A stretch of 64,000 nt of DNA from Microbotryomycetes sp. JL201 (lineage: Eukaryota; Basidiomycota; Microbotryomycetes). Location: the NCBI GenBank assembly GCA_033819885.1, contig JAQYUZ010000039.1, positions 1 to 64,000 on the forward strand. Reading direction: 5' to 3'. A program made the position numbers and the translations under genes. Position 1 is the first letter of the stretch, and each line of letters opens with the position of its first letter. Below the pieces are notes generated by a model that was not told the DNA's origin, did not search any database, and worked only from the letters and a program-made list of their open reading frames with translations. Positions 11,111 to 62,382 of the stretch are shown piece after piece.

Positions 11111-12770
11111 TTACCTGAATCCCATTTTAACCTTGACCATCTCGTGCTGCTTCCTGGCTCTTGGATTGTACTTTGCCAAGCTGTGAGCGCTGTGATGGTG
11201 ATGCAAGCTCGCCCTGAAAACCAAGTGCTTCTCAAAGCTGTCGAACCAGCTGTAGGTCCTTCCAGTTGCATTTAAAGTGCCATAACCGCGAGTTGACGGG
11301 ACTTTCATGGCCACTGACGACGATATAGCCTTGCAGCAGCTTCAGAACCCAAAGCTTGCGAAGTGCGCCGGTGTTGGCAAAGGCGTTGACTTCGAGGAAG
11401 AAGGATGAGGAGCAAATGTCGTAAAGTTGAGGCGGCAATTCCAATCCAAGGTCTGCGTCTGCACTTCGTTTCTCGTGTAGGATGCGCGAAGCCACAGACA
11501 CGAAGGTGCCGCAAAGGGCCACTTTCATGCGAGCACAGTCAGAAAGGCCCATCATGAGGGCGTCTCTACTTACGTGGAGATTGCAGAAAATTCCCTGGAG
11601 CTTGCGCCCGAATCCAAAACTGGCGGACGCCATCTATGAGCGCGTGCCTTCACGTTGACACTTTCGCAGGCTTCCTTACCGAACCTAGGGGATCGTGCTG
11701 ATCAATGTCGTTGATTGATCCACTCGGGGCCACGAATGATTCGAGAACGGATCGCAAGGCGATATTATGCCTCGCTGCGTGTGACAAGGCGTCGCCAAAC
11801 CTGACGGGATCTTGCGCTGTCAAACTATTGTGCAGTTGGTAGTATGCATCGTAATCTGACCATGCAGTAAAGCATTTCCAGGGCATGACGCGCAAGGCAA
11901 AAACGGCTCGACTCCTTCCATCGCGCCGCAGAGGATGAACCCTTCGTGCACCAGCCACAAGGCGTCGAGCAGATTGACGTTGCCAGGCATTGTCATGTGC
12001 GATCGTGCGCTCTGCCATACGCATGATCTACTTGGGAGCTATGAGGTACCACTTGCCTCTCACATAGCTGACAGAGGAGCTCATACGATGCGTGACGCAC
12101 CTGCTGAATACCGTCTGTCGGAGCCCGAGTCGGTGCCGCCAGAGCTGGGGTGCTGACGAGGCTGCTCGGCTTCGGTTGCCCTCCAAGAAAATGGTACAAG
12201 AAGAACCGATATGCAGCCAGTACAGCTAGTGGCCGGTATTCACAATCTGCGGCTTTTCGTAGAAGTCGGACGGTGGCAGTGGCATTCAAATTGGGTAGCT
12301 TGTGCTCTGCCAGGGACACGATGCATCCAGTCCCTTGTTCGTACATGCTGACCTGGTTGCGTCTGTAGTGTGATGGATCAGCAGCAAGAAGTCAGTTTCC
12401 AGGACCTCGTTGCTTCATTGGGGAGCCCTCACTGACTCGACCACCCAAGTCAACTCTCTGTGAATCACCTTCCTCTTGCACTCGAAAGATTCCAAGAATT
12501 TGTGCAAGCCGTCGCCGAGCAATCTCTGCCAGACAGATCGAGCTTGGCTCTGATCGTTGAACTTGGCTTGATGCAAGACTGAGCCGAGCAGCTGCTCAGC
12601 GTCCGAAGGCGAGAGGTCCGGATATACTGCACCGTCTGGGAGGGTTGGATTGTTTGGCGGCGCGCCTGGCATTCGCAGTAAAGTGTCTGTGGCGACGAGA
12701 ATGCCCTCCTCAGTGGCGACTTGTGAGTGAGGCAGCTCAAAGGCTACACCGCCGGCGTTTCCAGATGGCA
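11111..12770 (-). pseudogene. broken copy (A) of the unknown ILH/LY multigene family
   Basis: Closest to the next gene upstream (copy B). Homologous blocks run in order: 'EGILVATDTLLRMPGAPPNN', 'LAAYRFFLYHFLGG', 'VNLLDALWLVHEGFILCGAM', 'VASRILHEKRSADA' with 'LPPQLYDICS', and 'YSWFDSFEKHL'. The blocks are not in one frame. Compared base by base with B, there is a net +2 between 'GVEPF' and 'VMPW' (about 11890-11905) and a net +1 just before 'YSWFDSF' (about 11256). I also find no ATG on the minus strand between copy B's stop region and 'MPSGN' at 12770, so the start of copy B's first exon has no counterpart. Either a recent pseudogene or, less likely, sequencing errors. Confidence 0.65.
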
Positions 12771-13025
12771 TCGCGACGTGTTCGGTAATCTCGAAAAAGA
12801 AGCTCAGGTGGGCTGACCTCGGACGCCCCTCGGTCGAGCACGTCGTAAACTCCTGAAAGAAAATGGCGAGCTTGGTCGTCTGTGCGGTTTTGCAGGACCA
12901 ATCTTGGCCCTCGCCTGTTATAACCGGTCGACTTTGCCAAATAATTCTTGCTTGTCTTTTGCGACACAATGGGCAATCTTCTCTTGTAAGCTAACAGATC
13001 AAATGCAAGTGCAACAAACTGACTT

Positions 13026-14834
13026 CTACTTCCAGGGAACAAAGACTTTCACCCGTGATTTTCTCGTTTGTGGTGTATGTCGTGCTAGACTGAAAGCATG
13101 ATAATCCTCATGGGCGAGGTGCTCCTTGAACGAGTCGAACCAGTTGTAATGCTCCCATTGGCAAATGAAGCTGTCCTGTCCATCTGCAAATTTGTGCTTT
13201 ACGGCTTGGTCAACGAGGCTTTGATGGCCTGCAACTGTGATGTAGCCTTGCAGCAGCAGCAAGATGAGCAGCTTTTGTAGCGCACCGCTGTTTGCGAAAG
13301 CTGTATTGTCTTCAGACTCGTACAACGTGCGCGGACAGAGACCATACAAAGCGGCAGGCAAGCCCGCGTCCGCCTCTTTCCGTTTGTTTGCGTGCAAGAT
13401 GCGCGCTGCGATCGCAGCAAAGTGACCACACTCTGTTACTATAAGCGCTCATCTTGTCAGCCCCACGAGTCTTTCAATTTCATTGTACTCACGAGGCGAC
13501 TGCAAGCCATCGCCGGGACGCTTGGCCTTTGCCCAGAGCTAACAAGGACGCAAATGAGTAATCTCCCGTATGAAGCCCTCCTCTTCAGAGATCACTGACC
13601 GATCCCAATGGATTTCGTTGGCCAGTGACACTGAATTGCGCGCTCGGCGCAGAAAACGATGCCAGGACGCCCTTGACAAAAGCTCTGTGAGCTGCAGCGA
13701 GCAGCTTGGCATCGCCAGACGTGCTTGCTTCCTGCGTCGTCAAACTCTGATGCAGCTGCTGATATGCATCATAGCCGTCCCACGACCGCAAATGTGCCCA
13801 AGGCATGACACAACGCAAGAAAGGCTCTACTCCTTTCATAGCCCCGCAAAACACGAGCCCCTCGTGCACGAGCCACAATGCATCGACGAGATTGACACTG
13901 TCAGGAATTCTGATGGTGGTATCGGGTATAGAGTTAGGTCCAAGCGGCGGACTGTCGACGCCACGAAAATGGATTTTTATCTTGCAGAGTTGATGCAGCA
14001 GGTTGAGCTGAGCTTCAGAAAGCTTTCTGGTGACCATAGACGAAACAACGGGGTGCATTGCCCTGCGGGACTGTCTCCGTGCTGATACTATCGGTTTTGA
14101 GGGTCCTCCGCAGAAGTGGTAGAGCAAGAAACGATACGCCGCGAGAGCAGCCAGAGTCAAGTTAGCTCCCTGACTCGCCTCACGGATCAAATTTACCGCC
14201 CCGATGGCCTGCTGAGCAGCAAGCAGTTTCTCGGCGCAGTTTATGAGATCACGGAGGCCCTCATAGTAGTCTCGCTCAAGGCCACGCTTTGGTCTGTGTT
14301 GACGAAGCCGTGTAGGACCGTCAGCGAGATTCACACGTTCAATCAAAGTCAAACTTACATGACAGTCCACTGGCCTCGACGTTCCTCACATTCGAAGGAA
14401 GCCAGAAATGGTGTTATGTGCCATCCGAGCGCTGTCCGCAACACTTGACGAGGTCTACTGCTTTCAATCGCTTTGGCTTCTTGCAGCACCACTGCCAAGG
14501 GTCCTTCCACATCTCTGAGTGAGATTTCCGGGAACGATTCTCCGGTGGAATGGGGCGCTGCAGGGGCCAACAGCGTGTTCATGGCGACTATGATGCCTTT
14601 TTCTGTAGTTGACGCGGGTTCCAGCTGTGACATGTCGTTGAGTTGGGACACCGGTGCACCAAAGGGACGTATCACGAAAGAGGTGGCGCATCGCCACTGC
14701 GCCACAGGCTGCTCGCCGCGGCCAAATGTCCGAAACTCCTGTCCTGATTGTCTAGGAGTCTTCAAAATCGCATTCACATGTTCGGAAGCCGAGCAGAGCG
14801 AGGTTGACCACGACAAAGTAATGCGTTGATTCAT
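13026..14834 (-). CDS. ILH/LY-family protein B (function unknown)
   Basis: I do not recognise a known domain. The CDS starts at ATG 14834 ('MNQRITLSW'). A first intron ends in CAG before 'EFRTFGRGEQ'. A second has donor GTAAGT at about 14357 and joins 'RRGQWTVI' to 'PKRGLERDYYEGL'. Later blocks are 'LAAYRFLLYHFCGG', 'VNLVDALWLVHEGLVFCGAM', 'IAARILHANKRKEADAGLP' with 'LYGLCP', and 'YNWFDSFKEHL'; the stop is at 13026. The predicted protein is helical and soluble, with no signal peptide or membrane span. It is the best-preserved sister of broken copy A. Its tail ('TRKSRVKVFVPWK') differs from the 'YG...ARQFA' tails of other members, so A and B form a subgroup. Confidence 0.6.
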
Positions 14835-14866
14835 AAAAGATTAGTCTTCCTATGTTGCTGTGGTGA

Positions 14867-16498
14867 CTACAGCCATTTTGCCCGGTGAAACTTTCCTTGT
14901 GAGAAGCCATAGATGCTGGCCTTTCGCGCAGACAGCTCGGGCAAGCTCTCGGCATGATGAGCATGAGCCCATGGCTGACTAGATCGGTGTAAGCTCGTCA
15001 GACCGCGTAGAGCATGCAGATCAGGTTTGGATGCCTGAAAATCAATAATCTTGTTGAATTTGTTCAAACAACTTTCGACCTTGTTGGTGTGATTGCACTG
15101 CATTCAACTCTAGTCATTGATCAGGTCATGTATAAAAGGGGAGGACTGACCAGCTCAATGTACATACGGAGGGCTACGAGTGTTGAGCATTTTGCTCCTG
15201 CTCCTAGACTGGCAAAAGCCCCAAACGGGTACCTTTCCGCCTGGAGTCTCAAGTGCAGGATGCCATCAATCACGTCTGTGCCCACTTTGTCTTGACACAA
15301 CCGGATTGGAGCAATCGACTCGTACAACTGCGCAGGCAAAAAGTCGCTTTCGGCTCGCTTGTTGCTTGGATCGTGCAGAATGGCCGTTGCAATGCGGACA
15401 AAAAGACCGGCGATGAGGGCTGTATCGAGACGATTTGAGGAAGCTGGAAGCAACCATGACTTCATGAACATTTCAACTCTCACCTGGGGTGGGAGGTCGA
15501 TCTGTCAATGCGGTGCACCACAGCTGGAAACTCAGCTGTCAGTCTGCTCAGCCTTCGAACGCACGACGCAATACAGCTCACAGCGCTCAAAGGCTTGGCG
15601 TGCGATGCAAATCGACTGAGACTTTCCAAGCTTTGATTTTGAAACGGCTCCATCAGGATCCGCAGCTGCTTTGCCCTTCTCTCCGCTCGATCGTAGCAGT
15701 CGAAGAAATGTTGACGAGCACCTTGGTCGAGCTGTTGTGCCGGCGAATACCCAGCCCAAGTCCTGATCGTGTGCCACACAGGCTCAGCCAACAGAAGCGG
15801 GGTTTCTCTTGATGAACCGAGACCAAAGAGCGACAACGTATGGTCAAAGAGCCAAAATAGGTCGTTTAGTGTGGCGGAAGAAGGTTTGAAAATGAAAGGC
15901 GTGCTCCAAGCTTCTCGAGACGTTCGGACAGTGTTGACCTCGAGTGCTTCACTGTCCACATGCATGTCGCACACGATGGCCAAATCGGAGAATGCAAGGT
16001 ATGGTTGTAAGGCGGCCGGAACCTGTGGTGATCCTGCTGCAACAAGCACCTCCATCATGTGATATTCGGTTGAGATCACTCGTGAGAGATCAGTGGCCTG
16101 TCTGTCTAGTAGGTCGACAAACCCAATGTAATGACCGAATTGACGTTTGACCGTACTGTGGAATACCAGCAAAGCCTGGTCAAAGACGTGCTTGTCTCTG
16201 TGATGAGTTGATGAGAAATTGAATCAGACACAACCCGCCGTACACAAGAGCTGAGGACCTGCAAAACCTGGAGCTCTGTAAGGGAACTCTGACCAATCCG
16301 CACAATTTCGTAAGAGCTGAGGAACTCCAAAGGGGACTCCAAGATGATATGAAAGACGTGATATGCTCTGGTTGTATGTTTTTGAGCCATGAGCAGTACA
16401 AGTCGCAATTCTTCGTCGCGATCCTTGTTCGAGCCGCTAGACAAAACACGGAAGCCCCGTTCAAGAGCAACCCGATCAATTTCAGGCGAGGTTTGCAT
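14867..16498 (-). CDS. ILH/LY-family protein C (function unknown)
   Basis: Starts at ATG 16498 ('MQTSPEIDRVALERG'). An intron ends in CACAG near 16190, before 'DKHVFDQALLVFHSTVKRQF'. Then come 'TLNDLFWLFDHTLSLFGL', the hallmark 'IATAILHDPSNKRAESDFLP' with 'AQLYESIAP', an intron after 'LRMYIEL', 'LNKFNKIIDFQASKPDLH' and the C-terminal tail 'LSARKASIYGFSQGKFHR'. The stop is at 14867, only 32 nt from the start codon of gene B. 'LHDPSN' followed by 'ES' is shared almost exactly with gene G at 60 kb. No known domain; predicted intracellular helical protein. Confidence 0.55.
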
Positions 16499-16668: not shown

Positions 16669-16764
16669 GAAGTCACTGGTCTTGGAACTCTGCTTGAACA
16701 AGGAGGCTCTTCCGTTATCCCGATTCCACTTATTTGTCACCGCATCTCTCTATGTTTATGTGGA

Positions 16765-18505
16765 TCAGCTTCTTGGCAAATTTGCTCCAAACCAATCCGC
16801 TCTCAGCTGCCTTGCAGTTTTGCGGTACCTGCGAGACTGGCCAATAGACATGTTGATCAAACTTTGCGACCGAAATGGTGGTCGAGTTTCTTGCAAATGT
16901 CTTTCGACGCTGCTCAGCAGATCGTAATTGAAATTGCAAACGAATGACTTTAAGCGTTCGCTGAGCTCGCTCATGTGGCCGAACTTGAACCAAGTCAGCT
17001 GGGAGAGCATAGAAGTGGACAGCCAGGGCGCGCTCACTCCGCGAATGTATAGGGCCATCATGACGAGCAACAAGGATTTCTCTGCCGAAGATCGGTCTTC
17101 AAACTTGCGCATTTCACTTCCTGACGATGAAACAGCACATTGACCTTGAAAGGTAAAATTTTCGGGGCAAAAGTAACTGTAGAGAAGGATGGGAATGCCA
17201 GTGGCAGATTCCTGGTGCCGATGCTCGTGCAGTATTCGAATCGCCTCAAAAACGAAGCGGCCTGCGAGGTTAACAGGAATGGCATCTTTCGCACGTGATC
17301 TCAGTCGAGCAGCCCAGATCTGAATCAAAGTCAGCAAACGATCGTGTCAGAATTGATCAGCAAAGTACTGACGGCATAGAGCGGGTGCGTCGAGCTGACT
17401 GGCTCGGTGTTCTTTTTCAACGCTTTATCCCACACAGAAGGCTGGGCAAAACCGCCAATGACTCGGTTGGCCAGCTTGAAGTCCACCTTGTGCTGCGAAT
17501 GAAGATCAGACGGCATAGAAAAAGAGTTGAATAATGCTTGACGGTCTGCTGCATTCACTTGCTGGTCTAGTGCGTACTCCCGCCATTTCAGACGATCAGC
17601 CGCCTTCCAAGGCCATTCGCAGCGCAACAGTGCAGTGCTAGAGTCCTCGTCAAGGAGCTGAATGGTCACGTCCAGTAGCCAGAGTGCGTCTTTGAGAGTG
17701 AGCTGTTTGGGCTCGACAAGGATGCTCGAGCTAGCCGTCTTGTCGCTTGGCGTAGACCATTCCACTTTAATGTCAAAGTTGTGGGCATTGACATTGAAGT
17801 TGCACAATATCTCAAGTGCACGCGTAGTCCGATCCTTGCTGTACACGTCCGGAATTGGAACAGAAGTTGTCGAAAGGTTGTCCCGAGCATCAAATGAGGA
17901 CGCTGTGACAGCAGCGCGGCCCAGACTGCGTCGCGTATCGTCTCGTCTTTCCAATTGCGAGGTCTGTTTTCGGATCCCAGCATTTGAAGTCAAGGGTGAA
18001 AGGCCACGCCTTCTGCGAGCTGTGCTGCTCGTCGGCACTGAAAGTGCATCGGGTCGATCAAGCGCAAATTGTGCAAGACGAAAAATCGCCAAGCGCACTC
18101 TGGGTCCCGTGGGGTTTTCCGCCTTCTTTTGATCAAAGAGGTTGATGAATACTTGCTCGTGACGGATTCTATGCAGTATCGCTGATTCCATTCGGTCCAG
18201 GCAGGACTCGAATTCGTCATTGTCGCTTTGAAAGCAAAGGTCAGCTCGAGCACAATTTTGCAACAGCCGGCAGTCCCTCCTTACGTAACTTGAATCTTGT
18301 AACCTGGGCCGCTGACGAAGCTCGCACCGTACAAGGCGAAAAAGTCTGTCGCTCTTCCGAGTACTGAAACGAACACTTCGCGCTCTGGCGAGTTGGGTGC
18401 CTGGGAATTGTACAGGATTTTGAACCATTCTCGGCGACGTTCGTTTTCTCCCTTCATGTTGATGATGAGCGTGGCAGTGAAGATTGCGCGAGCTTGTTGC
18501 GGCAT
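16765..18505 (-). CDS. ILH/LY-family protein D (function unknown)
   Basis: Start ATG 18505 ('MPQQARAIFTATLIINMKGE'). Blocks in order: 'REWFKILYNSQAPNSPEREV', 'IRHEQVFINLFDQKKAENP', 'PRVRLAIFRLAQFALDRP', 'LTLKDALWLLDVTIQLLDED', 'EAIRILHEHRHQESATGIP' with 'ILLYSYFCPE', an intron, 'FGHMSELSERLKSFVCNFNY' and the tail 'SIGQSRRYRKTARQLRADWF'. The stop is at 16765. The first three blocks align well with gene E, so D and E form a second subgroup. No signal peptide, no membrane span, no domain I can name. Introns are short, with GTCAGT- or GTGAG-type donors. Confidence 0.55.
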
Positions 18506-18895: not shown

Positions 18896-21032
18896 CTATG
18901 ACCAACGTGCTGCAAATTGTCGAGCAACTCGAGGACCGTAAATTCGCCCTTGACGCTTACTCATTGACGTTGCCGGAGCAGCGCCTAGGTCTGTCAAGAA
19001 ATGACTATCAAAAGAAATTTTGATCTTGTGCAGGCTGAAATTAAAATTGACAGTTGCTCCAAGGCTCTGCTTCAATTCCGCAACGTGACCGAACTGATAA
19101 TTGGACACAGCACAGCAAGCCACGTCAGCGGGATTGCCTATCCTTGGAATTCACTAGACTGACTCCAATAGCGTACAAGTACGCGAGCAAGATGAGCTTA
19201 ACTTTGGCGTCTGCAGAAGTCAGCGCGAAAGCATTGCTGTGGCTTTGCCTGGTCGAACTATGGCTCAGGGTTCGTGTGCCCGTCGGAATAAGATTCTTGT
19301 GCATTGTATGATCGTAGAGACTTTCTTTGAGCTGTTCGCGCCCCCTTGTGTCATGCAACACCTTGGTTGCTGCGGCCACGAGCCTCCAAGCCACCCGTTC
19401 TTCAATCTGCGTCAGTTAGCCACATCACGGAGAAAGCGCATGCAGCGACACTCACCTGGTCGTTGCTCATAGAACGGATCTCCTGATTTTCCGAGTCCAA
19501 ACAACTGCAATACACTTTTTTAATCGGGTCTTTTACGACGAGTGGATGCAGCTGACCTGTTTGAGTCCAGTCCGACTTCCAGGATGATCGTTGCCAGAGT
19601 CGGTTTGGAGTCGCGAGACGCCTTCGCGAACGTCGCTCATCTTGCAGCTTTGCATGTTTTTACACAAACGGACCAGACAATCAAATATCTCCCTTTCCTT
19701 GTGGGCGTCATCCCGGATCTTGCCCGTCTCTCTTTGAACTTCGTCGTCAAGGATGAGCAATTTCCACTTGCCAAAGATGTTGTAGGCGACGAGTCCGAGC
19801 CACAGCGAGCCCCGTAGACTCTCGAAAAATTCGCGAGATTCATCCTTGAGTATGTCCTTTACGGTGTGACAAGTGTTCGGAAGTGCCACAGACTGGAGAA
19901 TCGGCAGTGTCCTGATTTGTTCGAAAAGCGAGCGAGCGAGGGCGACTCGAGCCAGCTTTTTTGTCGTGTACGTCATCCGAATATAATCAAAGAGGATCAA
20001 TATGGCTTTGTCGTTGACGTCTGCTTGCACCGCATCCAAAATGTACCGAGATAGCGATTTATGCTGGCCGGGCTCTGCTTGGCGCGGCCATCCAAGGCGT
20101 TCAAACAGGACGACCGAGGCAACTTGAATGAATTCCCGCATGCAAGCATCGTAAAGCTCTTGACTGCCGGTCACATGAACCTTCAATCAGCGTGATATAT
20201 CGCGCGAAAGGGACTTTAGACGCACTCGAGTATCGTGACCGTGCACAGGCTCGGGTCCTCTGCCACAATTGGAAACACAAAGCTCTTAAGGAACGCTTGC
20301 CACTTTTCTGGCGGAATTGCGGTTTTAAGAATACGACATGCGTCTGAATCTTCTTGTTGTACCGCTTTGAGCACGAGCACCAGACGAGCTCTCAACGCAT
20401 TCGGGTGCGATTTCAAAGAATTGACGATAAACTGGCAAGCCCTGTGCTCTCGCATCTTGATACCCGTTCCTGCCTCGTGTGTTGGATCCGAATTGCAGTC
20501 TGCTTCTTCGGCAGAGCTCTTGACCGCTTCGGAATCACTCGCGACGTCAGCGTCTCGCTTCAGAAACGGTTTTCGAAGGTTGTGCAAGGCCAAGCGAAAA
20601 ATTGCAAGTCGAAGTCGTGGACTGTGCGGGTCTTCGGCCCGTTTATTCCTGAACGCCTCGAGAAAGGCTTGTTCATGCTGGATACCGTCAAGCACGAATT
20701 GTGTAAGCCGGTCGAGTGCCACTCTGAAATCCGGCTCGTCGCTGCGATCATCTCACGGTCAACGCATGTTTGTACGCTACGGGCGCCGCAAAGACTTACA
20801 GCATCTCGAGTACATATCCTCGGACAGAAAAGTCTACTTTGAAAGTACTGAAAAACCCGACAGCCCCTTGTTTGAAGAATGTTGTAAACACACGTCTTTC
20901 TTCAGTGCCGGCCTCTTGCGCACGAAACAAGACTTTTCGCCACTCGAGAGCGCGGTCCTTGTCACTCTGTTTTTGGAGGATCGTGATGGCCGTGTTGGCA
21001 AATCGACGAGTTCTCGTCTCGCTGCCGACCAT
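18896..21032 (-). CDS. ILH/LY-family protein E (function unknown)
   Basis: Start ATG 21032 ('MVGSETRTRRFANTAITILQ'); an upstream GTG at 21065 is not a credible eukaryotic start. Blocks: 'EWRKVLFRAQEAGTEERRV', 'LDRLTQFVLDGIQHEQAFLE', 'FRNKRAEDPHSPRLRLAIFR', a long helical middle with 'LARVALARSLFEQIRTLPIL', 'AATKVLHDTRGREQLKESLY', an intron (GTCAGT...CTGAC...TTATCAG) between 'YAIG' and 'FGHVAELKQSLG', and the tail 'SMSKRQGRIYGPRVARQFAA'. The stop is at 18896. It is the clearest example of the family tail motif. Divergent from the sirtuin gene, with a shared 410-bp upstream region. Confidence 0.6.
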
Positions 21033-37301: not shown

Positions 37302-38899
37302 ATGAACGCTGCCGCGACTCAACTCTATGCAGAGCTCGAATTCGTTGCGGGCCAAAGTACCCGTCCAGATTGGTGCGCAAAGGCGTATCAAGATCTCATG
37401 TCTGTTGCAGCGGCAAAGGTGGACAGTCCCCAGTTCCAGATCTTGGCTGCACCATGGCTCAACCTGAAAGACAAGCTTCATTTCCATACGAGAATTTTCC
37501 AGGTTGTTTTCCCCGGACAAAGCTTCCTCCACCAGAATACGTAAGGGAATTTGGATCTGTGACAGCTCTGAGAGATTTCAGTGGGCTGACTGTCAGACGT
37601 CAACAGAGACTCTGACGGATTGACGCTCCCTCAATATCTTCATTTGTTTTGTAAACGTGGTCGAGGGGTGCTGAGCCGTTTTCAGCGCACTCATGGCGAC
37701 AATGTATCGCTGCCTGTCCTGTTCTGCTCGCAAGCCTGCAAGTTACCGGCTGGACCTGGCCAGTTGGTCCTGCTATGGCACTTTATCTATCGCACTGGCA
37801 AGCAGAGCGAGCTGGAATCACTGGTTTTTAGCGAAATACTGCGGGAGAACCTGGCCGAGATGCCATTGGCCGACGTGCCAACGGATGCAAGCCACTGGGA
37901 TGCTATCGCAAGCACAGCAGCGCCAGGGTTCGCAATGTCTGATCTTCTCGGTAGACTCGCCTTTGAATGGGTCCTACACCGCTTCCAGGCTCGTCGAATG
38001 TTCAATCTCAGCCTTGATAAGCTTCACGAATTTCGAAATAGGGATCTGGCCGGATCGTACGTCAAGCATGCTAGTCAGCCCATAAGTCTGGCCCTTCAAA
38101 CTCCAGCATTATGGTCCAAGAGTGGGGCGCATGCGATGATGGAAGCATTTGGGCCACCCATGATCCGATGCAAGGACAACCGATGGGCGCTCAGGTTGGT
38201 ACGCATAGAAATGCAGATACATAGGCTTGGATACTTACCTTGTTCCTGCAGCTTCTGTATCCGCGCAGGAATGATACAATTCACGAACCAGGTGTGGCTC
38301 GCAGTCCTGGCTGACCACGCCAAGTCTTGGTGCCTGACCCAGTCTTGTGTGGAATGTCGTGCAGGCTCATTGATCCGCCACTTTGTGGAGATGGGAGCTC
38401 AGTTGATGATGAATGAATACGCAAAGCATGATCATTTTTACGAACGCGTCCTCGCACGACTGGTACCTCCCATGCTTGTATCACAATACCAACACGAAAG
38501 CTCCGAGGAGACCGTATTTTTGGGCATCAATTCGGACAAGCAGATCCGTATGGCGCTTGCAGTGTTTTTGTGGGCAAGAGATGTGAGTTGTTCCGACAGA
38601 TCGAGACTTTTTTTTTAACATATTCTTTTTTGACCAATTGTTGGTAATAGCATGGCCGCACTGAAGCAATTGACAAGCGATTGCGTGTGATATACCCCAA
38701 CGAAAATATCATCAATTGGAACCTCGACACAAGTGAAATTGAAGAGGTTCTTCTTGCCCGTGCCATCGTTCCAGCAGTGCCGTCCCTTGCTCAACAGCAA
38801 CCGACTCACAGTTTGAACGGTCGGTCATTGTCGGCCAGACAGCGCAACATCTATGGTCTTGAGAAGGGAAGACAGATGCACATGAGGTGGTATTTATAG
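37302..38899 (+). CDS. ILH/LY-family protein F1 (function unknown)
   Basis: ATG 37302 ('MNAAATQLYAELEFVAGQST'). The first intron probably begins GTAAGG at about 37541; its acceptor is unclear. A large exon follows with 'LVLLWHFIYRTGKQSELESL', 'DLLGRLAFEWVLHRFQARRM' and 'FYERVLARLVPPMLVSQYQ' (a weak counterpart of the ILH/LY block). An intron from GTGAGT at about 38583 to TAG at about 38650 comes immediately before 'HGRTEAIDKRL'. The C-terminal tail is 'SLSARQRNIYGLEKGRQMHM', and the stop is at 38897-38899. The tail and the late intron tie it to the family; the middle is very diverged. No signal peptide or membrane span. Confidence 0.5.
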
Positions 38900-39016
38900 A
38901 CTACAATAACTTGGAATGAAACAATGGCAAGAAATAGGAGCTTTCCCGGCGCAAGTCCGCGGCTTGAATCCTGCGGAACCGTCAAATTCGGTGGTGCTTT
39001 GCATCCGGCAGCCAGC

Positions 39017-40633
39017 ATGAGCAACGTGTTGCACGTCAAGCTGACCAGCCTGCTCACCAAAGCATCAAACAGCCAAATCCAAGACGCCTGGAAGATGATG
39101 TTGCATCTTGCCAAGAAGCCGTCTTCGAAAGCCCATAGAATATTCAGAGCCACGTTCTCTGAGCGAGAAGAACAGCTCTTCGATTCATCGTACACGGTAG
39201 AGCTCGAGGGCGACGAAAAGCACCTGATCATCCTGTTTGTCGTACCGTATCTCACGCAATAGGGATTCGACCTGCTAAAACTTTTCTTTTCGCCTTGACA
39301 AGGAACATCGAACACCACCAGCGCTTGGTCCGACTGTTTTTCCTAGCGGGAAGAGCACTTGCGCTCGAACATCGCCACACCTTTGCAGAGGGACCAGTGC
39401 CAAACGAGCTGCAAGGTGAGGAGGGTCACTTGGTGCCAACCGAGCTCTACGTCGCACTTGAGCAAGGTCCGACCGTCAGAAATTGCGTTCTCGTTCTGAC
39501 CTACGTTAGCCTCATGTCCGAACATCGGCTGGACCTGCTGGAAGAGCTTAGGCGTGTGGCTCTTGCCCGCAAACTGTTTGGGCTCTTCAGCAGCATGCAC
39601 ATGCTTCAGTCTGCTGTAGTGCCAGAGGACCGCAATAACGTCGTCTGGCTCATGGGACTGGCAAATTCATGTTGGCTCGGTGAAACAGCATTTCATATCC
39701 TGTTGGAAACCCACGAGTCAAAATCGATGTTATTTCTGGACGGCACGATCAAGGACGAGCTGCAAATTGCTGGGCTTCAGAATTTGCACAGACAAAGGGT
39801 TTCATTGCAAATCGAGAGATTTTGTCGTAACTCGGAGCACGAAAGACAAAAATTCGGGGCAGAGACGCTTGTAGTCATGCTCAAGAGTCTCAAACGCGAC
39901 TGTAGCACTAGATTGGGCTCTTCGCCCCCACCTCTGGCAAACGTGAGACGGACAGGCAAACGTACCCGGTGCCGTTCTCTCCGATTGACAATTTCCACGC
40001 AGCTGTTCCGGCTTCCGACGGAACCGGAAAAAGAACGATTCAAATCCAAGCCAGGTAAGTTGGCTCAATGGCCCAACCCAACGAAAGGTAAATTTGACCG
40101 ACTCCAGTCTCTCGTTCTACAGTGCTTGAGGTGCAACCATTCATAACAAGCGCCGCGAGGCACATGCATAGGCACCAAGCTACAGAAGAAGTTGGCAAAG
40201 CGTGCGGGTCAATCGACAAGGGTGCCTACGACAAGTTCCGTTTCACAGCTACGGTTTCCGAGGAGCCGCGAACCACAGGTATGACTATCGTTCATTGCCA
40301 TGCCTTTGAAATGATTGGAGCAGACGAAAAGGTCCGCTCCTTATTGTCTCTTTTCTGCTGGTCTATCGGTGTAAGTCGGACTTTTCTACGCCGTTGACCT
40401 TGGCTGACTCAGCGCTCGTTTCTCGACGTTAGTTCGGGCATCGCAGGGAGCTCCAAGCTACGCTCGCTCACCTAGGACATGGGAACCTCGTCAACTGGCA
40501 TTTTGATCTCGAAAAGTTGCAGAATTCGTACGAGAACCGCACAAGGCCTAATTTTGAGCATTCTCTCAGCCCGAGGCAGCGTGCGGTGTATGGCGGTCTG
40601 ACAGCTCGACAGTTTGCTAGTAGATGGCAGTGA
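39017..40633 (+). CDS. ILH/LY-family protein F2 (function unknown)
   Basis: I place the start at ATG 39017 ('MSNVLHVKLTSLLTKASN') because two other copies also begin 'MS' followed by a similar helix; an in-frame ATG at 38924 would add 31 residues and lie 24 nt after the F1 stop. Blocks: 'RLFFLAGRALALEHRHTFAE', 'HLVPTELYVALEQG', 'VVWLMGLANSCWLGETAFHI', an intron near 40053-40120, then 'SLLSLFCWSIG'. Another intron (about 40370-40435) is followed by 'FGHRRELQATLAHLGHGNLV' and the tail 'SLSPRQRAVYGGLTARQFAS'. The stop is at 40631-40633. It ends 135 nt upstream of the ATG7 start. Confidence 0.55.
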
Positions 40634-40768
40634 TTTCTGTGGCTGCGGTTTCTTAGTTTGCTGTCATACAAGATGGTGATCGTGCTGCGTGCCGCTCAGG
40701 CCTCTCTGTCGTTGGCGACTTTCTCTCTCTCGATCGCGCCCTTGCGATCGTCGCCGCGGCTTCGGTTG

Positions 40769-43360
40769 ATGCCACAGCCGCTACAGTTTTTGCCATGGCA
40801 ATCGAGCCTGAGTCCCAGTTTCTGGGCCGAGCTGACGCAGTTCAAGCTGTTTGTGTCAAAGCTGGACGACAAACCAGCTCCGATCACTGCTACATACACC
40901 CTCGGAAAGACATATATTGACAAAGAGACAGGAGAGGCTATCGGCAGAGGTGGTGCGCTTGAGCTTGACGAGCAGCAGGGCGCGTTCGCGCCAGACGACG
41001 CAAGAGCCTCCGAACAGTGAGTCTTTCGAGCAGCAGGGAATCGGATCATTGCCAAAAGGGTTGTCGAAAACCGATCGACCCGTGTCAGACTCTTTCAAGC
41101 CGGCTCGATGGCTACGGGGTCATGTGGGGGTTGAATCAGCGCGGAAGCCGGCGGCAAGCAATGCAGAGCTGAAAGTGCTAACTGTACAGGAGTGAAAATG
41201 ACTATACAAGTCTACGGACGAGACTCCGGGGCACTCTGCGCAACTACAACACTGTGGAAGAGTTTCGTAACAGCGACAAGAACGCTCTCTTGTCCGCGGA
41301 AGCGGATAGAGTGCGTAAAGTGCTATTTCCCTTGACTTTGCATTGACATGTGATTTCTTGGCCAGCTCTGGGACCGAATACATGACCCCTCGGCATCGCT
41401 CGAATCGCTCAACCCGTTCCTGCTGGTCACGTTTGCCGATTTGAAAAAGTACAGATACTACTACTGGTTCGCGGCCCCTGCACTTGTACAAAAGCCGGGG
41501 TGGCAGGTCCTCGACGAGTGGCAGGACTGGTCAGGTCCTGAGGTACGTGCTCGAAGCAAGAAAGAATCGCTTGCTGACAAACCATGAAATCAGCTTGACT
41601 GTCGAGAGTCGGTCGCGATCGCAACAAAGAGCGCCGGTGGTGTATATGACTATGCTCAGGTGTCGCTGGCGCGGTCCTATTTTGCCAACATCGACGCAGA
41701 GGACCGCTTGTTGATCGTGCGCGACCCATCAGCTCATCCGATGGCACCAGGCTGGAACGTTCGGAATCTGCTCACGCATCTTTGCGCTTATAATGGAATC
41801 ACGTCGCTTCGTCTCGTGCTTGTTCGCGACAAAGCGATTCGGACAGTGCTCATCGGCATTGACGAGGCGGCGGCGAACCCGGCGGCTGAGAGACCAGGTG
41901 TGGTCGGCTGGGAGAAGAACGAGAAGGGCAAGCTTGGTCCGCGCATGGCAGATCTTGCTCCGCTCATGGACCCGACAAGGTTCGTGAGGGTTCCTGCAAC
42001 CTCCTTCAGGTCCCTGATTTGAGGGTCCGCACAGGCTCGCCGACCAGGCTGTCGGCTTGAACTTGCAGCTCATGCGCTGGCGTATCATGCCCTCGCTTGA
42101 TCTTGAGAAAGTGAAACAGACTCGAGCGTTGTTGCTGGGAGCTGGTACGCTGGGATGCTACGTAGCGAGAACTCTCATGGTTCGTTCGGCCGCAAAGAAA
42201 CACTCTGAAATCCGCTGATCTCGTGCGATTGCAGGCCTGGGGAGTTCGAAAGATCACGTTTGTCGATTCCGCTACCGTGTCTTTCTCAAATCCTGTGCGA
42301 CAACCTCTTTTCGAATTTGAAGACTCGATGAACGGTGGCAAGCCAAAGGCTGAAACGGCTGCTGCAGCACTCAGAAAAATTTATCCCGGAGTGGTGAGCG
42401 CTCATCCCTTGCAGGTAGTATGATTTTATTTGAAGCCCGATGTTCTATAGGATGCGCATGGCATATCAATGTCGATTCCCATGCCCGGCCATCCAGTCTC
42501 GCCGAATCAAATTGAAGCCACAAAGCTTGCTGTCGAACAATTGGAGCGCTTGTTTGACGAACATGACGTTGTATACCTCTTGATGGACTCTCGAGAAAGC
42601 CGGTGGTTGCCGACAGTTATTGGCGCTTCGAAGCGAAAGGCGAGTCTCCAAACCCACCTCCGCGTCCGTGACTGACATTCGTGCACAGCTTGTGATGAAT
42701 GTCGCACTTGGATTCGACACATATCTCGTCATGCGCCATGGCGTGCGAAACGGTACATCAAGCCCGCAAGCGACAGAGTCTGGCGCATCCAATGGCCGGT
42801 TAGGTTGTTATTTCTGCAACGACATCGTCGCACCCATGGATTCCCTCAGTGACAGGACGCTCGATCAGATGTGCACCGTCACACGGCCTGGCATCGCTTC
42901 GATCGCAAGTTCGACGGCAGTCGAGCTCATGGTATCCATCCTACAACATCCTCATGGACCTGCAGCTGCGTCTGAAACCAGTGTGATGACAGAGGCACAG
43001 TCGAGGACGTCAGATCAGGTCGGCTCGTCGCCGGGATCGCCGTTAGGTCTTGTTCCGCATCAAATCCGAGGCTTCTTGGCCCAGTTCAACAATCTGAGAA
43101 TTACAGGTCAAGCCTACGATCGTTGTACAGGATGCAGTGAACAGGTGCGACTCAAGTGTACCGTCATCTGCATGATTCTGATATTCGGAAAACAGATAAT
43201 TTCAGCGTACGAGGAACAAGGCATGGAGATGCTGCTGAAAGCATTCGACGACGCAACCCATCTTGAGCGTATAACCGGGTTGGATAAGCTCAGTCAAGAG
43301 ACGGACGGTTTGATGGAAAGCTTGGATTGGAGTGACGACGACGAGGGCAGTGCATCGTGA
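40769..43360 (+). CDS. ATG7: E1-like autophagy activating enzyme Atg7
   Basis: Activates Atg8 and Atg12 for conjugation in autophagy. ATG 40769 gives '[20 protein letters not shown]', the standard Atg7 beginning; earlier in-frame codons read as 5' UTR. N-terminal domain: '[16 protein letters not shown]', '[19 protein letters not shown]', '[20 protein letters not shown]'. Adenylation domain: '[18 protein letters not shown]', '[20 protein letters not shown]', '[10 protein letters not shown]', '[17 protein letters not shown]'. The catalytic cysteine is in '[16 protein letters not shown]' (codon 42872-42874), followed by '[11 protein letters not shown]' and '[20 protein letters not shown]'. The acidic tail ends '[14 protein letters not shown]'. 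About seven introns; the first (about 41018-41191) is long and ends after a CTAAC branch site. It is flanked on both sides by unrelated family genes on the same strand. Confidence 0.92.
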
Positions 43361-43445: not shown

Positions 43446-44806
43446 ATGTCAGATACAGCAAAAGTCTTTGCGAATATGGCTGGGGTGCTTGAAGGGAAAA
43501 GCCTCTGCGAATACAACGCGGTGTTGCAGTCGATCGAGCAAGCGGGCACGAGCGGCTATCACGCTTTCATGTACGTATTTGGCTCAGATACTATGCCAAG
43601 GATCCAAAATCTGGTGAAGCAAGCTTATCTTCAGCAAATGTACGTTAGATGCTTCAATTGAGCTCACCGGCACTCATCTTTTCGTTTCAACAGTTCAGAA
43701 TCAGAGAAGCATGAGCTGTGGACTGTGTTTGGCCAATTCACCGAATATACCATGCACATCCTGCTGCGGTACGCAAGAGGTACTCACGCTCTTACTCCAC
43801 CGGCAATCCTCGTGCATCAACTGCAATCCTTGTCGGCCGAAAATCCATTCAAGGTAGTGGCTTTGACAGTGTACCTTGCGCATCATTTGCATTCGTCGAA
43901 TAATTATGATAGCAGCCAAGATATTGTGCACCAAGTGCTTTGGCGCATGTTGGCTTTCAAACCCCTAAGAGCCGCCGATTTGGGGTCGACGGCATCCGAC
44001 AGGAAAACACATCTCATGACCTGGCCTCATCGAAAAAAGATTATGCAATCCCTTTGGTTGCTCGACGAAGCATACAATAGTTTATTCGGGCGGCTGCCGA
44101 TGTTCTGCGCTCAAAATGCGACCGCGTACTGGAAAGAGCGGCTCGACTGGAACAATACCTTTACCAGAACAATCGAAGTTCAGGTTAGACGCTACTATTT
44201 CCTTCTCGACCAGAATCAACAGATTGCTGCGGCCTGCAGCGTGGCAGATGCCGGCAAGAGTCGTCAGCCACCACTCGCGCCACGCTCAGTATATCAACGA
44301 TGGACACAATTTATGGGTTCTTCACGACGGACATCACCAGATCGTCAAAGCCCGTTCGTCGCTGTGATTGCTTTAGCGCTTTAACTCTCGCTTCAAATCA
44401 CTGAATCGATTGACGTTGCAGCTGTTTGATTGGCCAGGTGATCAATCTGAAACAAGTCGAGTACCGGGTAAGTGGTGCTGCTTCAGGTCGAAAGGAGCCA
44501 CTCGGACTCATCAACATCCACAGCTCTCGTTCTGTGCAACTTTGTTTGGGCCGTTTGTCAAGTTGCGAAGCACAGAGAACTCGAGACCGATATCCAAAAA
44601 GCGTTTCACGACAAGATATCTTCCGCTGTTTACCCAATGCATCTTTCCACCATCTATGGCGAGCCAGCCCACGAGTATGAGCTGCCTCACGGTATGTTCC
44701 TGCCCAACATCTCGGTCGCAGAGAAGTCCTGGTGTTTTTTGCTCTGCGAGCTTTATATGATCGCGGTCAGTCGCATCGTTACTTGATTCCGCGAACCCAA
44801 AAGAAG

Positions 44807-44869
<63 letters not shown>

Positions 44870-45154
44870 AAAAAGCAAAAATCGACTGATATACATTTAC
44901 TTCAGTTCAAGCTTGAGCATGAGGTGCTTCAAGCGATGGATCATCGGCTCAGACAATACGTCAATTTCTCAACGCGCCGCAATTACCTTGTTCTATCATT
45001 CTTGACTCAATTTGGACGCGTGCAACTCGACGATGGTGTGAGCTCAGCACCGCTTTCCCTTAGTAAACGCCAGCAGCATCACTATGGACCAGAAGTGGCG
45101 GCTAGCTTTGTCAGGCGGGCGCAGACAGGCAATCTTGCCACAAACCGGACATAA
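43446..45154 (+). CDS. ILH/LY-family protein F3 (function unknown)
   Basis: ATG 43446 ('MSDTAKVFANMAGVLEGKSL'), 85 nt after the ATG7 stop. Blocks: 'SEKHELWTVFGQFTEYTMHI', 'IMQSLWLLDEAYNSLFGRLP', 'ELETDIQKAFHDKISSAVY' with 'LSTIYGEP' (counterpart of the ILH/LY block). An intron of about 140 nt (GTCAGT at about 44766 to CAG near 44906) contains a 61-nt poly-A run. Then come 'FKLEHEVLQAMDHRLRQYVN' and the tail 'SLSKRQQHHYGPEVAASFVR'. The stop is at 45152-45154. Splicing between 44190 and 44480 is uncertain. Soluble helical protein of unknown role. Confidence 0.5.
44807..44867. repeat. poly-A tract, 61 nt, inside an F3 intron
   Basis: Pure A run on the plus strand, flanked by A-rich sequence. 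It lies wholly inside an intron. No target-site duplication or coding insert accompanies it. Confidence 0.9.
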
Positions 45155-45490: not shown

Positions 45491-45496
45491 GAAGTG

Positions 45497-45578
45497 CTTC
45501 CCGTCCGGGAGTCGAACCCGGCTCTCACGCGCCCCGATTAATGACAGGCGTGTATACTAACCGATATACTAACGAGAA
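45497..45578 (-). tRNA. tRNA-Asp (GTC) with a 10-nt intron
   Basis: Read on the minus strand the molecule folds as follows. Acceptor arm TTCTCGT pairs with ACGGGAA, with discriminator G. The D arm is GTAT/GTAT with GGTTA. The anticodon stem is CACGC/GCGTG and holds CTGTCA, giving anticodon GTC (Asp). The T arm is CCGGG/CCCGG around TTCGACT, which forms the B box. The anticodon loop is 17 nt instead of 7, implying a 10-nt intron directly after position 37, the normal place for nuclear tRNA introns. Total 82 nt. Confidence 0.88.
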
Positions 45579-58865: not shown

Positions 58866-59016
58866 CGTCTCCTGACCTGGAACAATGGAAAAATGATTAT
58901 TTTTCTTGCTCGGCAAAGTTTTTCAGGAGTCAGCATATCCGCGGCTTTCTTGCTTGCACCGGAGGGCAAAGCCTCGACTTTTGCTTTCATTACGTACGCG
59001 GTCCAACCCGTCTGTC

Positions 59017-60649
59017 ATGTCTTCCCAATCAACTCACAGCCGACCAAAAGCTTTATTGGCGAGGGAAGACGAGGTGCACGTCAGCCTGAGCGAGACGATC
59101 GAAGCCATCCTGCATGATCACAACAAGGCGACCGGTTTTGAAGACGATTTCGCAAAACTATTGCACGACCTTCAACGGTCCATGATACCTACGACACGTT
59201 TCGTGTTTTCGGAACTGCTTGGATTTCACACAACGAGCGAGCTCAGGTCGATTTATCAGGTAAAGACAACAGATGAGCCTCATCGTCTGTTTCAAGTAAG
59301 CGTGGGGTGAGCACGAGATTCATCCTTTCATATGTAGGCTCGCACTGACTTGTTTGCCAAGGCACGGTGACTCTGTCAATTTCCACGGCCATTTGACGGC
59401 TTTCGTACGAGCTTCAATACGAGTTTTGGGTTCATATTATCCGTCTTTGGAAGTTTTCTCAATGATTGAGGAAGAGATGAACAAACATGTTGCTGGAGCT
59501 TCAATAGGCCGACTCGTGTTGGCTTGTTACACGGCGATGGACATTCTTGGCTGGGTGAGCGCGCCTGACGTTGACGTGGCAAGCTCATAAGTGAGATACT
59601 GACAAGCGAGCCCCTTCCAGGAGAGCTGCGGCTTCAACTTTGACAGCATCGTGGTGACAGAAATTGCTCTACAATCTCTCATCCGAGTCTGCATGGTCAA
59701 AACCTCGCCAGACGTCTTGAAGCAACATGATAAAAAAGCTTTGCTCGAGAACGATTTGCTCGCGCGCGAAGTGTTTAAACTATTCTTTGACAAGCATGCA
59801 ATTCTGAAACCGCCTGGACAGGTTCTATCGGCGTTTGACAACGATCGAAGAGAAGCGATCGAACTGTACAAGACTCTTGTCAGCCAGCCGCTCCTCACAG
59901 GGTTGCAGTCTCATGCTGAGCACTTGGGACATCTGGTCGATGGTTTCGTGGCAAACTCTAGCATGCAGATCGCATTGTCGAGTCGTGCTCATGCCGCACT
60001 GCATCCTCTATCTAGCGCAAGTCGTGGCTCTGCCATAGACAACTGCAACAAATTGACACTTTCCGCGACAGCTGTGGTGCACCTACCATCAAGACACTCT
60101 CAACACGAGTACGTCCTGTTGAACTCCCAATTTGTCTTTGTTCTGACACTGAAGATTTAGCAAAACTCGCGCACGCCATCATATCCGCAACCAGCGAGAT
60201 CCTCCATGATCCCAGCAACCGCAACAAAGAGTCAGGTCATCTCCACCCCTGGGTGTACGCAAGTTTGTCAACTGCGACAACCTATGACGAACTGTGCCGG
60301 TGGACCGCTGCGCAAAAAGACAAGATTCTGATCCTCGCTTTGCTCTACGTTCGAACAGTGAGCTATTAACGAGTCCATACGGCGATTGCTGAGTGAAGAC
60401 GACCAGTTCAACCACATCAACGCGCTAAAAAGAAATGTCGGGTTGCCCGTATTCTGGGAGAGGAGAGCTCATGACGGCATCTCGTCCTTCAAAATTGCCA
60501 TGCTCGGGCTGATTGAGGATTTAAAGGATGGTTTCAAACGAATCGAGTTGAATGACCTAAACGCAGAGGGCGATACGGTGTTCGAGTTGGCTCAAAGGAA
60601 AGACTCGGTCACTGTTTGGCAGTCGGGTACGCACCGAAAGTGGCGTTAG
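59017..60649 (+). CDS. ILH/LY-family protein G (function unknown)
   Basis: ATG 59017 ('MSSQSTHSRPKALLAREDEV'). Blocks: 'VSLSETIEAILHDHNKATGF', 'LLHDLQRSMIPTTRFVFSEL', then after introns 'SVNFHGHLTAFVRASIRVLG', 'IGRLVLACYTAMDILGW', 'VTEIALQSLIRVCMVKTSPD' and 'LLAREVFKLFFDKHAILKPP'. The family hallmark is 'ISATSEILHDPSNRNKESGH' with 'LHPWVYASL' (near-identical to gene C). An intron from GTGAGC at about 60360 to CAG at about 60408 precedes 'FNHINALKRNVGLPVFW'. The tail is 'LAQRKDSVTVWQSGTHRKWR', and the stop is at 60647-60649. The splice leading into the hallmark exon (near 60050-60150) is uncertain. No signal peptide or membrane span. Confidence 0.55.
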
Positions 60650-60925
60650 AGCCACTGACGTGGTAAGCTCTCAATCGAAGGAGAGAAGGAGGAGCAGGAG
60701 GAGATGGCATTCCGTGATGGTGGCAAAATGGTCTGCGCTAGTGTGAGCTGGTTGATGAGCTTAAATAGAACGTACCTAGCGAGCAACATCAGGAAAGAGA
60801 AAACTTCCTGATTCATCAAGGTCTTCGCCGAAGCTTTGTCAGGAGACACGGAAGCAGTAAATGTGCTTCGCCCCGGGGCCGAATCGTGGAAATTTTCTTT
60901 CCTCTCCCTTGTTCATCTCAAAACC

Positions 60926-62382
60926 ATGTCACAGGACCCCGTTGTCGCAATGGCTCGCCATTACGTCCAGAAAGCAACGGACGCAGAAATCAACAATGCC
61001 CTCGATACAATCCTGCGAGGACCGCGCTCCCCAGTGTTCCGCTCTTCGTTCTTGACTCTTGATTGCCTCCTTCACGGAGGCAACGATATCATTAAGTTCC
61101 AGAGCACTTTTCACTGCGATTCGGCAGGCTGGAAACCGCTGTGAGCTGAGTATGAATGGCTCGCATACGCACTACAAGGACTCACGATCTTTCATAAGTG
61201 ACCAAGTCACATTCTACAACATGCTCCACCGCATGACGAGAAAAGGTCGGCGCATCATTGCCTTCAAAAATCCCATTGCCGCCGAAATTTTAAGTCAGTC
61301 TCTGGTCCATGACGATCTCGCGCCTCGCCGGGACTTTGTCGCTGTATATTATGCCTTGGAAGCAGCCGCTTGGCCAAAGTATTACGCCCTACTCGACCGA
61401 ATCTGCAAGGTCGATGTTGCAGATCTTGGTTCGATCGTTGACCAACACTCTGCAAGAACTCGTCTCAAGGAGTTGTTTGACGTGGACGCCATCTCAGCCT
61501 CGACTTTTCACATCTTGCTCACGCAACCAAGACTGCAGCCAAAGATCCAGCTCAAGCCCGAGCATGAATCAATCACATTCTCAGAATGGTACGAGTTTGC
61601 AGTCCACCAGCCTCTCATGTCGGCTGTAATCTACGAAAAGTTCCCTTTTGAAGTTGTGCCAGAGCTGCTCGGTGGGTTTTTGAGACCGTCGTACAGGGAT
61701 GAAAAACTGCTGGAGCACGGTGTTGGTGCTGGACACAAGCATCCACTGTCTTACGTGAGTGTCATCGCAGGCATCAGGATGAGCGAGTGCTGAACAAGCC
61801 TCTCAGATCTGGTGCGAGTCCACCAAGACGGAAGCATTCGGGAGCATTGGTGAGCAAATTTGGGGGTGAACTCCGTGCCGACGTCTGACGTGGTTCCTAG
61901 TCGAACGAGTTCGGGCGTACTTGGACTGTACAGCCGACATACTCGAGCAGAACGCTTCAAAAGAGCGGGACATTGTCCCAGCCTCACTTCACAGACTGCT
62001 TGACCGGGCATACCTGCGCGAAGGGCACACGTTCGAGTCTGCTTCGGGCGGACGGAAAAGCCAGATGCTGGCTGCCGCTGTGATATACAATCACTTTGTG
62101 AGCGCAACGTTATCAAAAAGAGCCATGGACTCATCACTCACGCGAGTACAGTGCAAGCACGAAGACGTGCTTCAAACATGCGTCACGCTGGGTTCCATCC
62201 TCTATCAAGATAGAACGGCATGGTCTGCTGCATTTCAACAGATGATCAAGGGGCTAGCGGCGTCTTTCGAGGGCAATGACAAGCTCCGCACTCACATCTC
62301 CCAGGCAAGGTCATTGCCCGCTTTGTCAAATCGCGAGAGTCCAATGTCTCGTCGCAAGAGGCGGCTGTACGGCTTTTCATAG
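60926..62382 (+). CDS. ILH/LY-family protein H (function unknown)
   Basis: ATG 60926 ('MSQDPVVAMARHYVQKATDA'), an N-terminal helix resembling F2 and F3. An intron (GTGAGC near 61141) leads to 'GSHTHYKDSRSFISDQVTFY', 'EILSQSLVHDDLAPRRDFVA', 'VYYALEAAAWPKYYALLDRI' and 'FSEWYEFAVHQPLMSAVIYE'. Two short introns near 61753-61806 and 61850-61900 precede 'RVRAYLDCTADILEQNASKE' with 'RDIVPASLHRLLDRA', the counterpart of the ILH/LY block. It ends 'ESPMSRRKRRLYGFS' at 62382, a shortened form of the family tail that stops right after YG. Convergent with the NudE gene. Confidence 0.55.

What the first reader, a model, noticed from the sequence alone, without database searches (positions are those of the whole stretch)
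11111..62382. Ten-copy family of unrecognised multi-exon genes interspersed with housekeeping genes
Seen: ten genes (A-E at 11.1-21.0 kb, F1-F3 at 37.3-45.2 kb, G-H at 59.0-62.4 kb) share a block of the form (A/R)x(I/V)LH(D/E)...E...(L/I)P..L(Y/H), e.g. 'RILHEHRHQES', 'AILHDPSNKRAES', 'EILHDPSNRNKES', 'ILEQNASKERDIVP'. Most also share 'L.DALWLLD'-like and C-terminal blocks. They have introns, no signal peptide, no membrane segment and no domain I know, and occupy about a quarter of the window. Inference: a lineage-restricted, fast-diverging cytosolic or nuclear family under repeated local duplication, the kind of pattern seen for recognition, incompatibility or host-interaction proteins. This is the best candidate here for an undescribed system.
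Basis: partly seen in the sequence, partly recalled or inferred. Interest (0 to 1): 0.85.

Follow-up and report, generated by a model that had tools for sequence, protein, structure and literature searches.

The report
Clustered orphan gene family in a fungus
A stretch of what looks like a fungal chromosome carries a cluster of old, related, multi-part genes that match no known protein family; most of them end in a similar short tail, so they look like a real but undescribed family whose job is unknown.

Summary
The family is real. Six of ten genes (A, B, C, D, E, F2) hit another family member in genome-wide single-protein searches. Left-out profiles recover B, C, D, E, F1 and F2. F3 and H rest mainly on a shared C-terminal tail; G on one motif and intron positions. 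The tail ([LM][ST]x[RG][QK]xxxY, usually YG, 12-31 residues before the stop) ends 7 of 10 genes and no stop-ended frame tested in 200 kb of other stretches. Five more copies, well or fairly supported, lie outside the window (four on the same contig); four places are candidates.

No family or fold matched (Pfam, PDB sequences, PDB folds, viral folds). A moderate-confidence C-terminal model is all-helical and ends in a helix pair.

These are old duplicates under purifying selection, without sign of positive selection. Gene A carries frame breaks. Restriction to a lineage could not be tested.

Function is inferred only: probably an intracellular helical adaptor with a variable body and a constant C-terminal docking tail. 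Interest moderate.

The parts
11232..12771 (-). Gene A: copy closest to B, interrupted by three frame changes relative to B that no intron explains
   Evidence: tblastn of B against the region gives blocks in frames -3, -2, -1, -2, -3; pieces 36-73% identical to B
13026..14633 (-). Gene B (exons 14633-14359, 14293-13600, 13538-13493, 13438-13026); ILH block, DALWLVHE block; lacks the tail motif
   Evidence: own gene model, splice sites listed; left-out profile 1.6e-8
14867..16498 (-). Gene C (exons 16498-16106 uncertain, 16055-15582, 15501-15151, 15097-14867); ends LSARKASIYGFSQGKFHRAKWL
   Evidence: left-out profile 8.2e-5 and 0.006; D hits it genome-wide at 1.4e-4
16765..18505 (-). Gene D (18505-18285, 18225-17373, 17319-17038, 16983-16765); ends MSIGQSRRYRKTARQLRADW...
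   Evidence: left-out profile 1.3e-7
18896..21032 (-). Gene E (21032-20800, 20741-20226, 20163-19557, 19504-19456 micro-exon, 19399-19155, 19093-18896); ends MSKRQGRIYGPRVARQFAARWS
   Evidence: open over 615 aa; left-out profile 6e-8 and 1.2e-6
37302..38899 (+). Gene F1 (37302-37540, 37607-38582, 38651-38899); ends LSARQRNIYGLEKGRQMHMRWYL
   Evidence: left-out profile 9.7e-6 for the tail exon, 14 for the rest
38924..40633 (+). Gene F2 (N-terminal exon(s) 38924-39262 and ~39310 uncertain; 39514-40054, 40123-40370, 40433-40633); ends LSPRQRAVYGGLTARQFASRWQ
   Evidence: left-out profile 2e-7 and 0.0048; E hits it genome-wide at 0.0023
43446..45154 (+). Gene F3 (43446-43639, 43694-44384, ~44487-44765, 44906-45154; the join across a poly-A run is uncertain); tail LSKRQQHHYGPEVAASFVRRAQ
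   Evidence: strict tail pattern and tail expression; left-out profile not significant, 1.1, with a faulty row
59017..60626 (+). Gene G (59017-59306, 59362-59554, 59621-60016, 60161-60357, 60407-60626...); EILHDPSN block; tail degenerate
   Evidence: shares ILHDPSN with C; left-out profile 0.72, not significant
61152..62382 (+). Gene H (61152-61754, 61807-61849 micro-exon, 61901-62382; N-terminal exons upstream uncertain); ends MSRRKRRLYGFS
   Evidence: widened tail expression; left-out profile 0.28, not significant alone

Best explanation
A tandemly and locally expanded family of probably intracellular, helical proteins. SHOWN or well supported: common descent of most copies; shared exon structure; a conserved C-terminal domain of about 150 residues (ILH block, then usually an intron, then an FGH..EL / NW block); a tail of 12-31 residues at the stop in 7 of 10; purifying selection in the pairs compared; one interrupted copy; most known copies on one contig. 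INFERRED: the proteins work as adaptors or scaffolds. In this reading the variable N-terminal and middle helical region (about 300-400 residues, with a DALWLLD helix) binds different partners, while the constant C-terminal helices and tail dock to one shared cellular partner. Duplication would then add new specificities to one machine.
For: Genome-wide hits and left-out profiles. Tail in 7 of 3,613 stop-ended frames of the window, all seven in family genes, against 0 of 11,304 elsewhere. Phase-0 intron before the FGH-like exon in C, D, E, F1, F2 and (inferred) G, and a phase-0 intron followed by a 43-49-nt micro-exon in B, E and H. pS far above pN in all nine pieces of four pairs. AlphaFold model of D's C-terminal piece all-helical, mean pLDDT 72.6, pTM 0.57, tail helices 159-165 and 169-180, block means 91 and 79. 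The C60 copy keeps an N-terminal-type block of about 66 residues joined almost directly to the tail, as if body and tail were separable modules.
Against: No direct evidence of binding, localisation or expression. B lacks the tail and G has only a degenerate one, so the tail is not essential to every copy. The middle region could not be modelled (pLDDT 48.5). The adaptor role is drawn from anatomy alone. E has a hydrophobic stretch (1.96) that could be a membrane helix. Family exons score near zero under the coding model learnt from other genes, which could mean low expression or relaxed codon choice.
Confidence: 0.35

Rival explanations
1. A nucleic-acid-binding family: the last ~20 residues form a helix-turn-helix (R-x-x-x-YG-[IV]-[ST]-T-x-Q-L-x-x-[KR]-W) that binds DNA or RNA.
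For: The tail is modelled as two helices separated by a short turn. Several copies read YGIST.QL or close to it, which resembles transposase and homeodomain-like HTH motifs (recalled, not tested by a profile comparison). Net charges of eight models are +2 to +16.
Against: No HTH family was reported for ten C-terminal segments against Pfam at E<=10 (the filters drop most weak hits); no PDB sequence or fold. In several copies the second helix lacks the pattern, and H stops right after YGFS.
Confidence: 0.2
2. A highly diverged branch of a known helical family (F-box adaptor, HEAT/ARM-like or similar) that these libraries cannot reach.
For: Helical models (the second of low confidence); only in-house profiles from about ten divergent rows were available. 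One exon of E hit F-box-like_2 at E=0.11, below its cutoff.
Against: Nothing above cutoff in Pfam for 10 ORFs, 3 whole models or 10 C-terminal segments; best PDB fold match E=3.7.
Confidence: 0.2
3. Self/non-self recognition, incompatibility or drive genes diversifying under conflict.
For: Local clusters, divergent copies, an interrupted copy, no family match.
Against: No sign of diversifying selection in nine pieces of four pairs, though saturation hides recent episodes at single sites. No known incompatibility, drive or NLR domain in the pieces scanned.
Confidence: 0.12
4. Host-interaction proteins (non-secreted or unconventionally exported).
For: Expanded family without known domains.
Against: No strong N-terminal hydrophobic signal in the models measured (several N-termini uncertain); nothing known of host or life stage; the duplicates compared are old and constrained.
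Confidence: 0.06
5. The shared blocks are chance.
For: F3, G and H do not reach significance with left-out profiles; the tail expression was widened after seeing copies C, D and H; genome-wide the strict tail pattern has 14 places against 10 for its reversed control.
Against: E-values down to 7.7e-10 (D/E) and 5.8e-14 (B/A) genome-wide, left-out profiles, strict tail pattern concentrated on C33, 7 of 14 hits on 1% of the genome, shared intron phases.
Confidence: 0.02

Closest known systems
Lineage-specific expanded orphan gene families of fungi (general pattern, recalled)
   Same: Clustered paralogues, no domain match, an interrupted copy
   Different: Here a shared C-terminal tail and exon structure; restriction to a lineage not tested
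wtf spore-killer family of fission yeast (recalled)
   Same: Multi-exon, clustered, with broken copies
   Different: wtf proteins have several membrane segments; here only one stretch, in E, exceeds the usual hydropathy line. No sequence relation was tested
Helix-turn-helix domains of transposases and homeodomain-like proteins (recalled motif)
   Same: YG[IV][ST]TxQL-like tail in some copies, two helices in the model
   Different: No profile or fold match; tail sits at the extreme C-terminus and is degenerate in several copies
F-box-like_2 (PF13013)
   Same: Sub-threshold hit in one exon of E, E=0.11
   Different: Below cutoff (13 against 21.6 bits), not reported for the other nine ORFs or for whole E

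Membership tests
Any Pfam-A family | Score above the curated cutoff | tested here: not met
   10 ORFs; 3 whole models; 10 C-terminal segments; the nearest is T5orf172 in one copy at E 0.0026, 18.7 bits against 20; others at E 0.03-0.24 are far below cutoff
Helix-turn-helix DNA-binding proteins | Match to an HTH profile or fold | tested here: not met
Helix-turn-helix DNA-binding proteins | Two helices joined by a short turn within a tri-helical core | tested here: inconclusive
   Helices 159-165 and 169-180 predicted in D; packing not readable
Recognition / incompatibility / drive genes | Diversifying selection or presence/absence polymorphism | tested here: inconclusive
   Purifying pattern in nine pieces of four pairs; no population data
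Secreted effectors | N-terminal signal peptide | tested here: inconclusive
   Crude hydropathy only: highest N-terminal 12-residue mean 1.86, in B; several N-termini are uncertain and no signal-peptide program was available
Lineage-restricted family | Absent from related genomes | not testable with these tools
   Only the window's own eukaryotic genome was searchable
One homologous family | Each member found by a profile made without it | tested here: inconclusive
   Met for B, C, D, E, F1 (tail exon only), F2; not for F3, G, H. A, never in the profile, is found at 6e-11, or 1e-7 with B left out

The most novel reading that the evidence does not exclude
An undescribed intracellular system in which a set of paralogous helical proteins with variable bodies all plug, through one constant C-terminal tail, into a single shared partner or nucleic-acid site, giving the cell a modular repertoire that grows by local duplication.
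Probability: 0.2. Interest if true: 0.7.

Novelty: new member of a known kind. Interest (0 to 1): 0.42.

Why it matters
If confirmed, a family model could tie together genes that automatic annotation may scatter as unrelated hypothetical proteins. My own simple gene finder, trained on the rest of the genome, missed all ten, though it also missed conserved neighbours such as the SIR2 and ATG7 genes. The shared tail gives a simple handle, by pull-down or tail deletion, for finding what these proteins do.

Tried and rejected
Alignment search of the own genome was not accepted, so a DNA pattern and single proteins were used. The middle-domain model was too poor to interpret. PDB and viral fold searches of the C-terminal model gave nothing at E<=0.001 (6 and 37 matches at E<=10); the pdb_via library was not available. 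A viral-contig scan with D's C-terminal piece matched 9 stretches by pattern, none a relative by tblastn; the genome-contig scan did not run, the alignment being too divergent. Attempts to name the species through papers gave nothing usable (listings only), so the organism is called fungus-like from gene content, intron size and genome size. Literature searches for such a family (only the listings seen, for the best 15 of 559, no paper opened) showed none by title or abstract start. That is weak evidence of absence, because the species is unknown and the family has no name. Self-comparison of the window's DNA showed no repeat joining the family genes. The left-out test for F3 used a wrong-frame piece as F3's row (one stop inside); F3's own frames were still searched, but the faulty row sat in the other profiles. 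In one search the listed 'best non-family' frame L033 3-254 is in fact an exon of copy X1; the next ones have E of 0.59 or worse.

Full report
What the window is. The window is bases 1-64000 of contig C33 (166,137 bases) of a 17.15-Mb, 92-contig assembly. Short introns (median 60-61 bases in my models) and neighbours with SIR2, thioredoxin, XRN_M, ATG7_N, ABC-transporter and NUDIX domains (6 of 10 ORFs scanned; the other four had no match at E<=1e-4) point to a fungus. The species was not identified. Some neighbouring models named in my scripts (for example 'lipase-like', 'MED') carry recalled labels without a Pfam match.

Gene models. I wrote a simple gene finder, trained on the window and 20 stretches of 10 kb from other contigs. 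Trained on the bulk of genes it found many neighbours but none of the ten claimed genes; it also missed the SIR2 and ATG7 genes. With a relaxed coding term and a model learnt from family pieces it recovered most of them, and I fixed several joins by hand from the shared blocks. Under the bulk model nine family models score -0.020 to +0.008 per base against 0.013 to 0.067 for nine neighbours. This is partly circular, since neighbours helped to train the model. All exon joins are predictions; C's N-terminus, F2's N-terminus, F3's centre, G's end and H's start are uncertain.

Is it one family? Protein D searched against the whole genome at E<=10 returned itself and only E (7.7e-10 and 0.0135), B (1.2e-4), C (1.4e-4) and A (0.0122). 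An exon of B returned itself and A (5.8e-14, 4.2e-11, 2.4e-8, E<=0.001). E returned D (7.7e-10 and 0.0098) and F2 (0.0023). F2 returned E (9.7e-4) and one doubtful place on C20 (0.096). C returned D (3.9e-5). F1 and H found only themselves. A profile of the C-terminal domain, rebuilt each time without the gene under test and run on 6,892 frames, recovered B (1.6e-8), D (1.3e-7), E (6e-8 and 1.2e-6), F2 (2e-7 and 0.0048), F1's tail exon (9.7e-6; its other exon 14) and C (8.2e-5 and 0.006). It did not recover F3 (1.1), G (0.72) or H (0.28) at a significant level.

The tail. The expression [LM][ST]x[RG][QK]xxxY within 45 residues of a stop occurs in 7 of 3,613 stop-ended frames of the window, all in C, D, E, F1, F2, F3 and H. 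It occurs in 0 of 11,304 such frames in the 20 other stretches. Frames under 15 residues were counted but not tested, and the expression was widened to take in C, D and H after seeing them. The strict DNA form (as in E, F1, F2, F3) has 14 places in the genome against 10 for the reversed control. So the total alone is not remarkable, but 7 of the 14 lie on C33, which is 1% of the genome.

Gene structure. A phase-0 intron follows a (H/N/K)PL(S/Y/G)-like end in B, C, D and H and the equivalent place in E. A 43-49-nt micro-exon then precedes the ILH exon in B, E and H. A phase-0 intron precedes the FGH-like exon in C, D, E, F1, F2 and G. G's intron there was placed with the family in mind, and its upstream one needs a GC donor.

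Copies beyond the window. X1 (C33 76.8-78.2 kb) and X3 (C33 123.4-124.95 kb) were fetched by the tail pattern. X1 is independently supported: its ILH exon, which holds no tail, scores 6.2e-6 against a profile that never saw it. X3's score (1.2e-5; 2.2e-4) is for the exon that holds the tail, so it is partly circular; its preceding exon scores 3. X3 also carries an LNTLWL stretch like the DALW block. C33 125.9-127.0 kb matches X3 (1.1e-8 and 0.011). C33 74.1-74.3 kb matches X1 (1.3e-4). C60 22.2-22.6 kb matches X1 at both ends (1.3e-5 and 0.0046; reverse 4.3e-6 and 0.0024); there an N-terminal-type block runs almost straight into the tail. Candidates by tail only: X2 (C33 78.6-80 kb; its other exons are not significant, and its protein found only itself), C8 284.86 kb, C31 135.3 kb and C43 65.2 kb. 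The other four pattern hits (C22, C34, C45, C67) do not look like family tails. Ten in the window plus five give 15, plus four candidates; the searches state that they give lower bounds, and not every member was used as a query. The best profile hit in the 20 other stretches had E 4.3.

Selection. Nine pieces from four paralogue pairs (A/B five pieces, D/E two, E/F2, X1/C60; 33 to 117 codons) give synonymous differences of 0.61-0.98 per site, eight of nine saturated, and nonsynonymous 0.12-0.46. Choosing the best local protein alignment lowers the second figure, but the contrast is large. These copies are old and constrained; a claim of rapid adaptive change is not supported, and recent single-site selection cannot be seen. 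Gene A shows the same constraint yet changes frame three times against B where there is no room for an intron. Either it was lost recently or these are assembly errors.

Structure and known families. No Pfam family passed its cutoff, no PDB sequence matched the profile, and no PDB or viral fold reached E 0.001 (best 3.7 and 1.9). D's C-terminal piece (one open frame that keeps a 54-base in-frame predicted intron) models as all-helical, pLDDT 72.6, pTM 0.57, with tail helices 159-165 and 169-180. B's middle region fails (48.5).

How it may work. Shown: homology of most copies, architecture, constraint in the pairs compared, local clustering. Inferred: intracellular location (crude hydropathy of eight models, where E's C-terminal stretch at 1.96 is above the usual membrane line and B's N-terminus is fairly hydrophobic) and an adaptor role with a constant docking tail. 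An HTH-like nucleic-acid-binding tail is the main rival; the motif resemblance is recalled and failed the profile tests available. Recognition or host-interaction roles remain possible but have no evidence of their own.

Verdict. The observation largely stands and is improved by the tail, the intron pattern and the copies outside the window; the inference about fast diversification does not. Lineage restriction is untested. Moderate interest.

Noticed in passing
window 1321-3783 and 4482-6842, minus strand: A tandem pair of long genes, about 71% identical at DNA level over a 589-column alignment and 82% over 116; their ORFs at 1705-2427 and 5056-6000 had no Pfam match at E<=1e-4.
   Followed up: partly
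window 44766-44905: A long A-rich run lies inside the predicted intron of F3; the assembly or the join may be unreliable there.
   Followed up: no
window 45496-45578: A tRNA-Asn gene on the minus strand lies just after F3.
   Followed up: no
L051 222-629 (C60 22.2-22.6 kb): A short copy in which an N-terminal-type block runs almost directly into the tail, without most of the C-terminal domain.
   Followed up: partly
L034 1297-1569: One outside copy has a sub-threshold match to T5orf172 (E 0.0026, 18.7 against 20 bits), not reported for the other nine segments; probably chance.
   Followed up: no
window 40673-43360: An ATG7-like gene (ATG7_N match at 41588-42019; model) sits between F2 and F3, so the cluster is broken by a conserved autophagy gene.
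   Followed up: no
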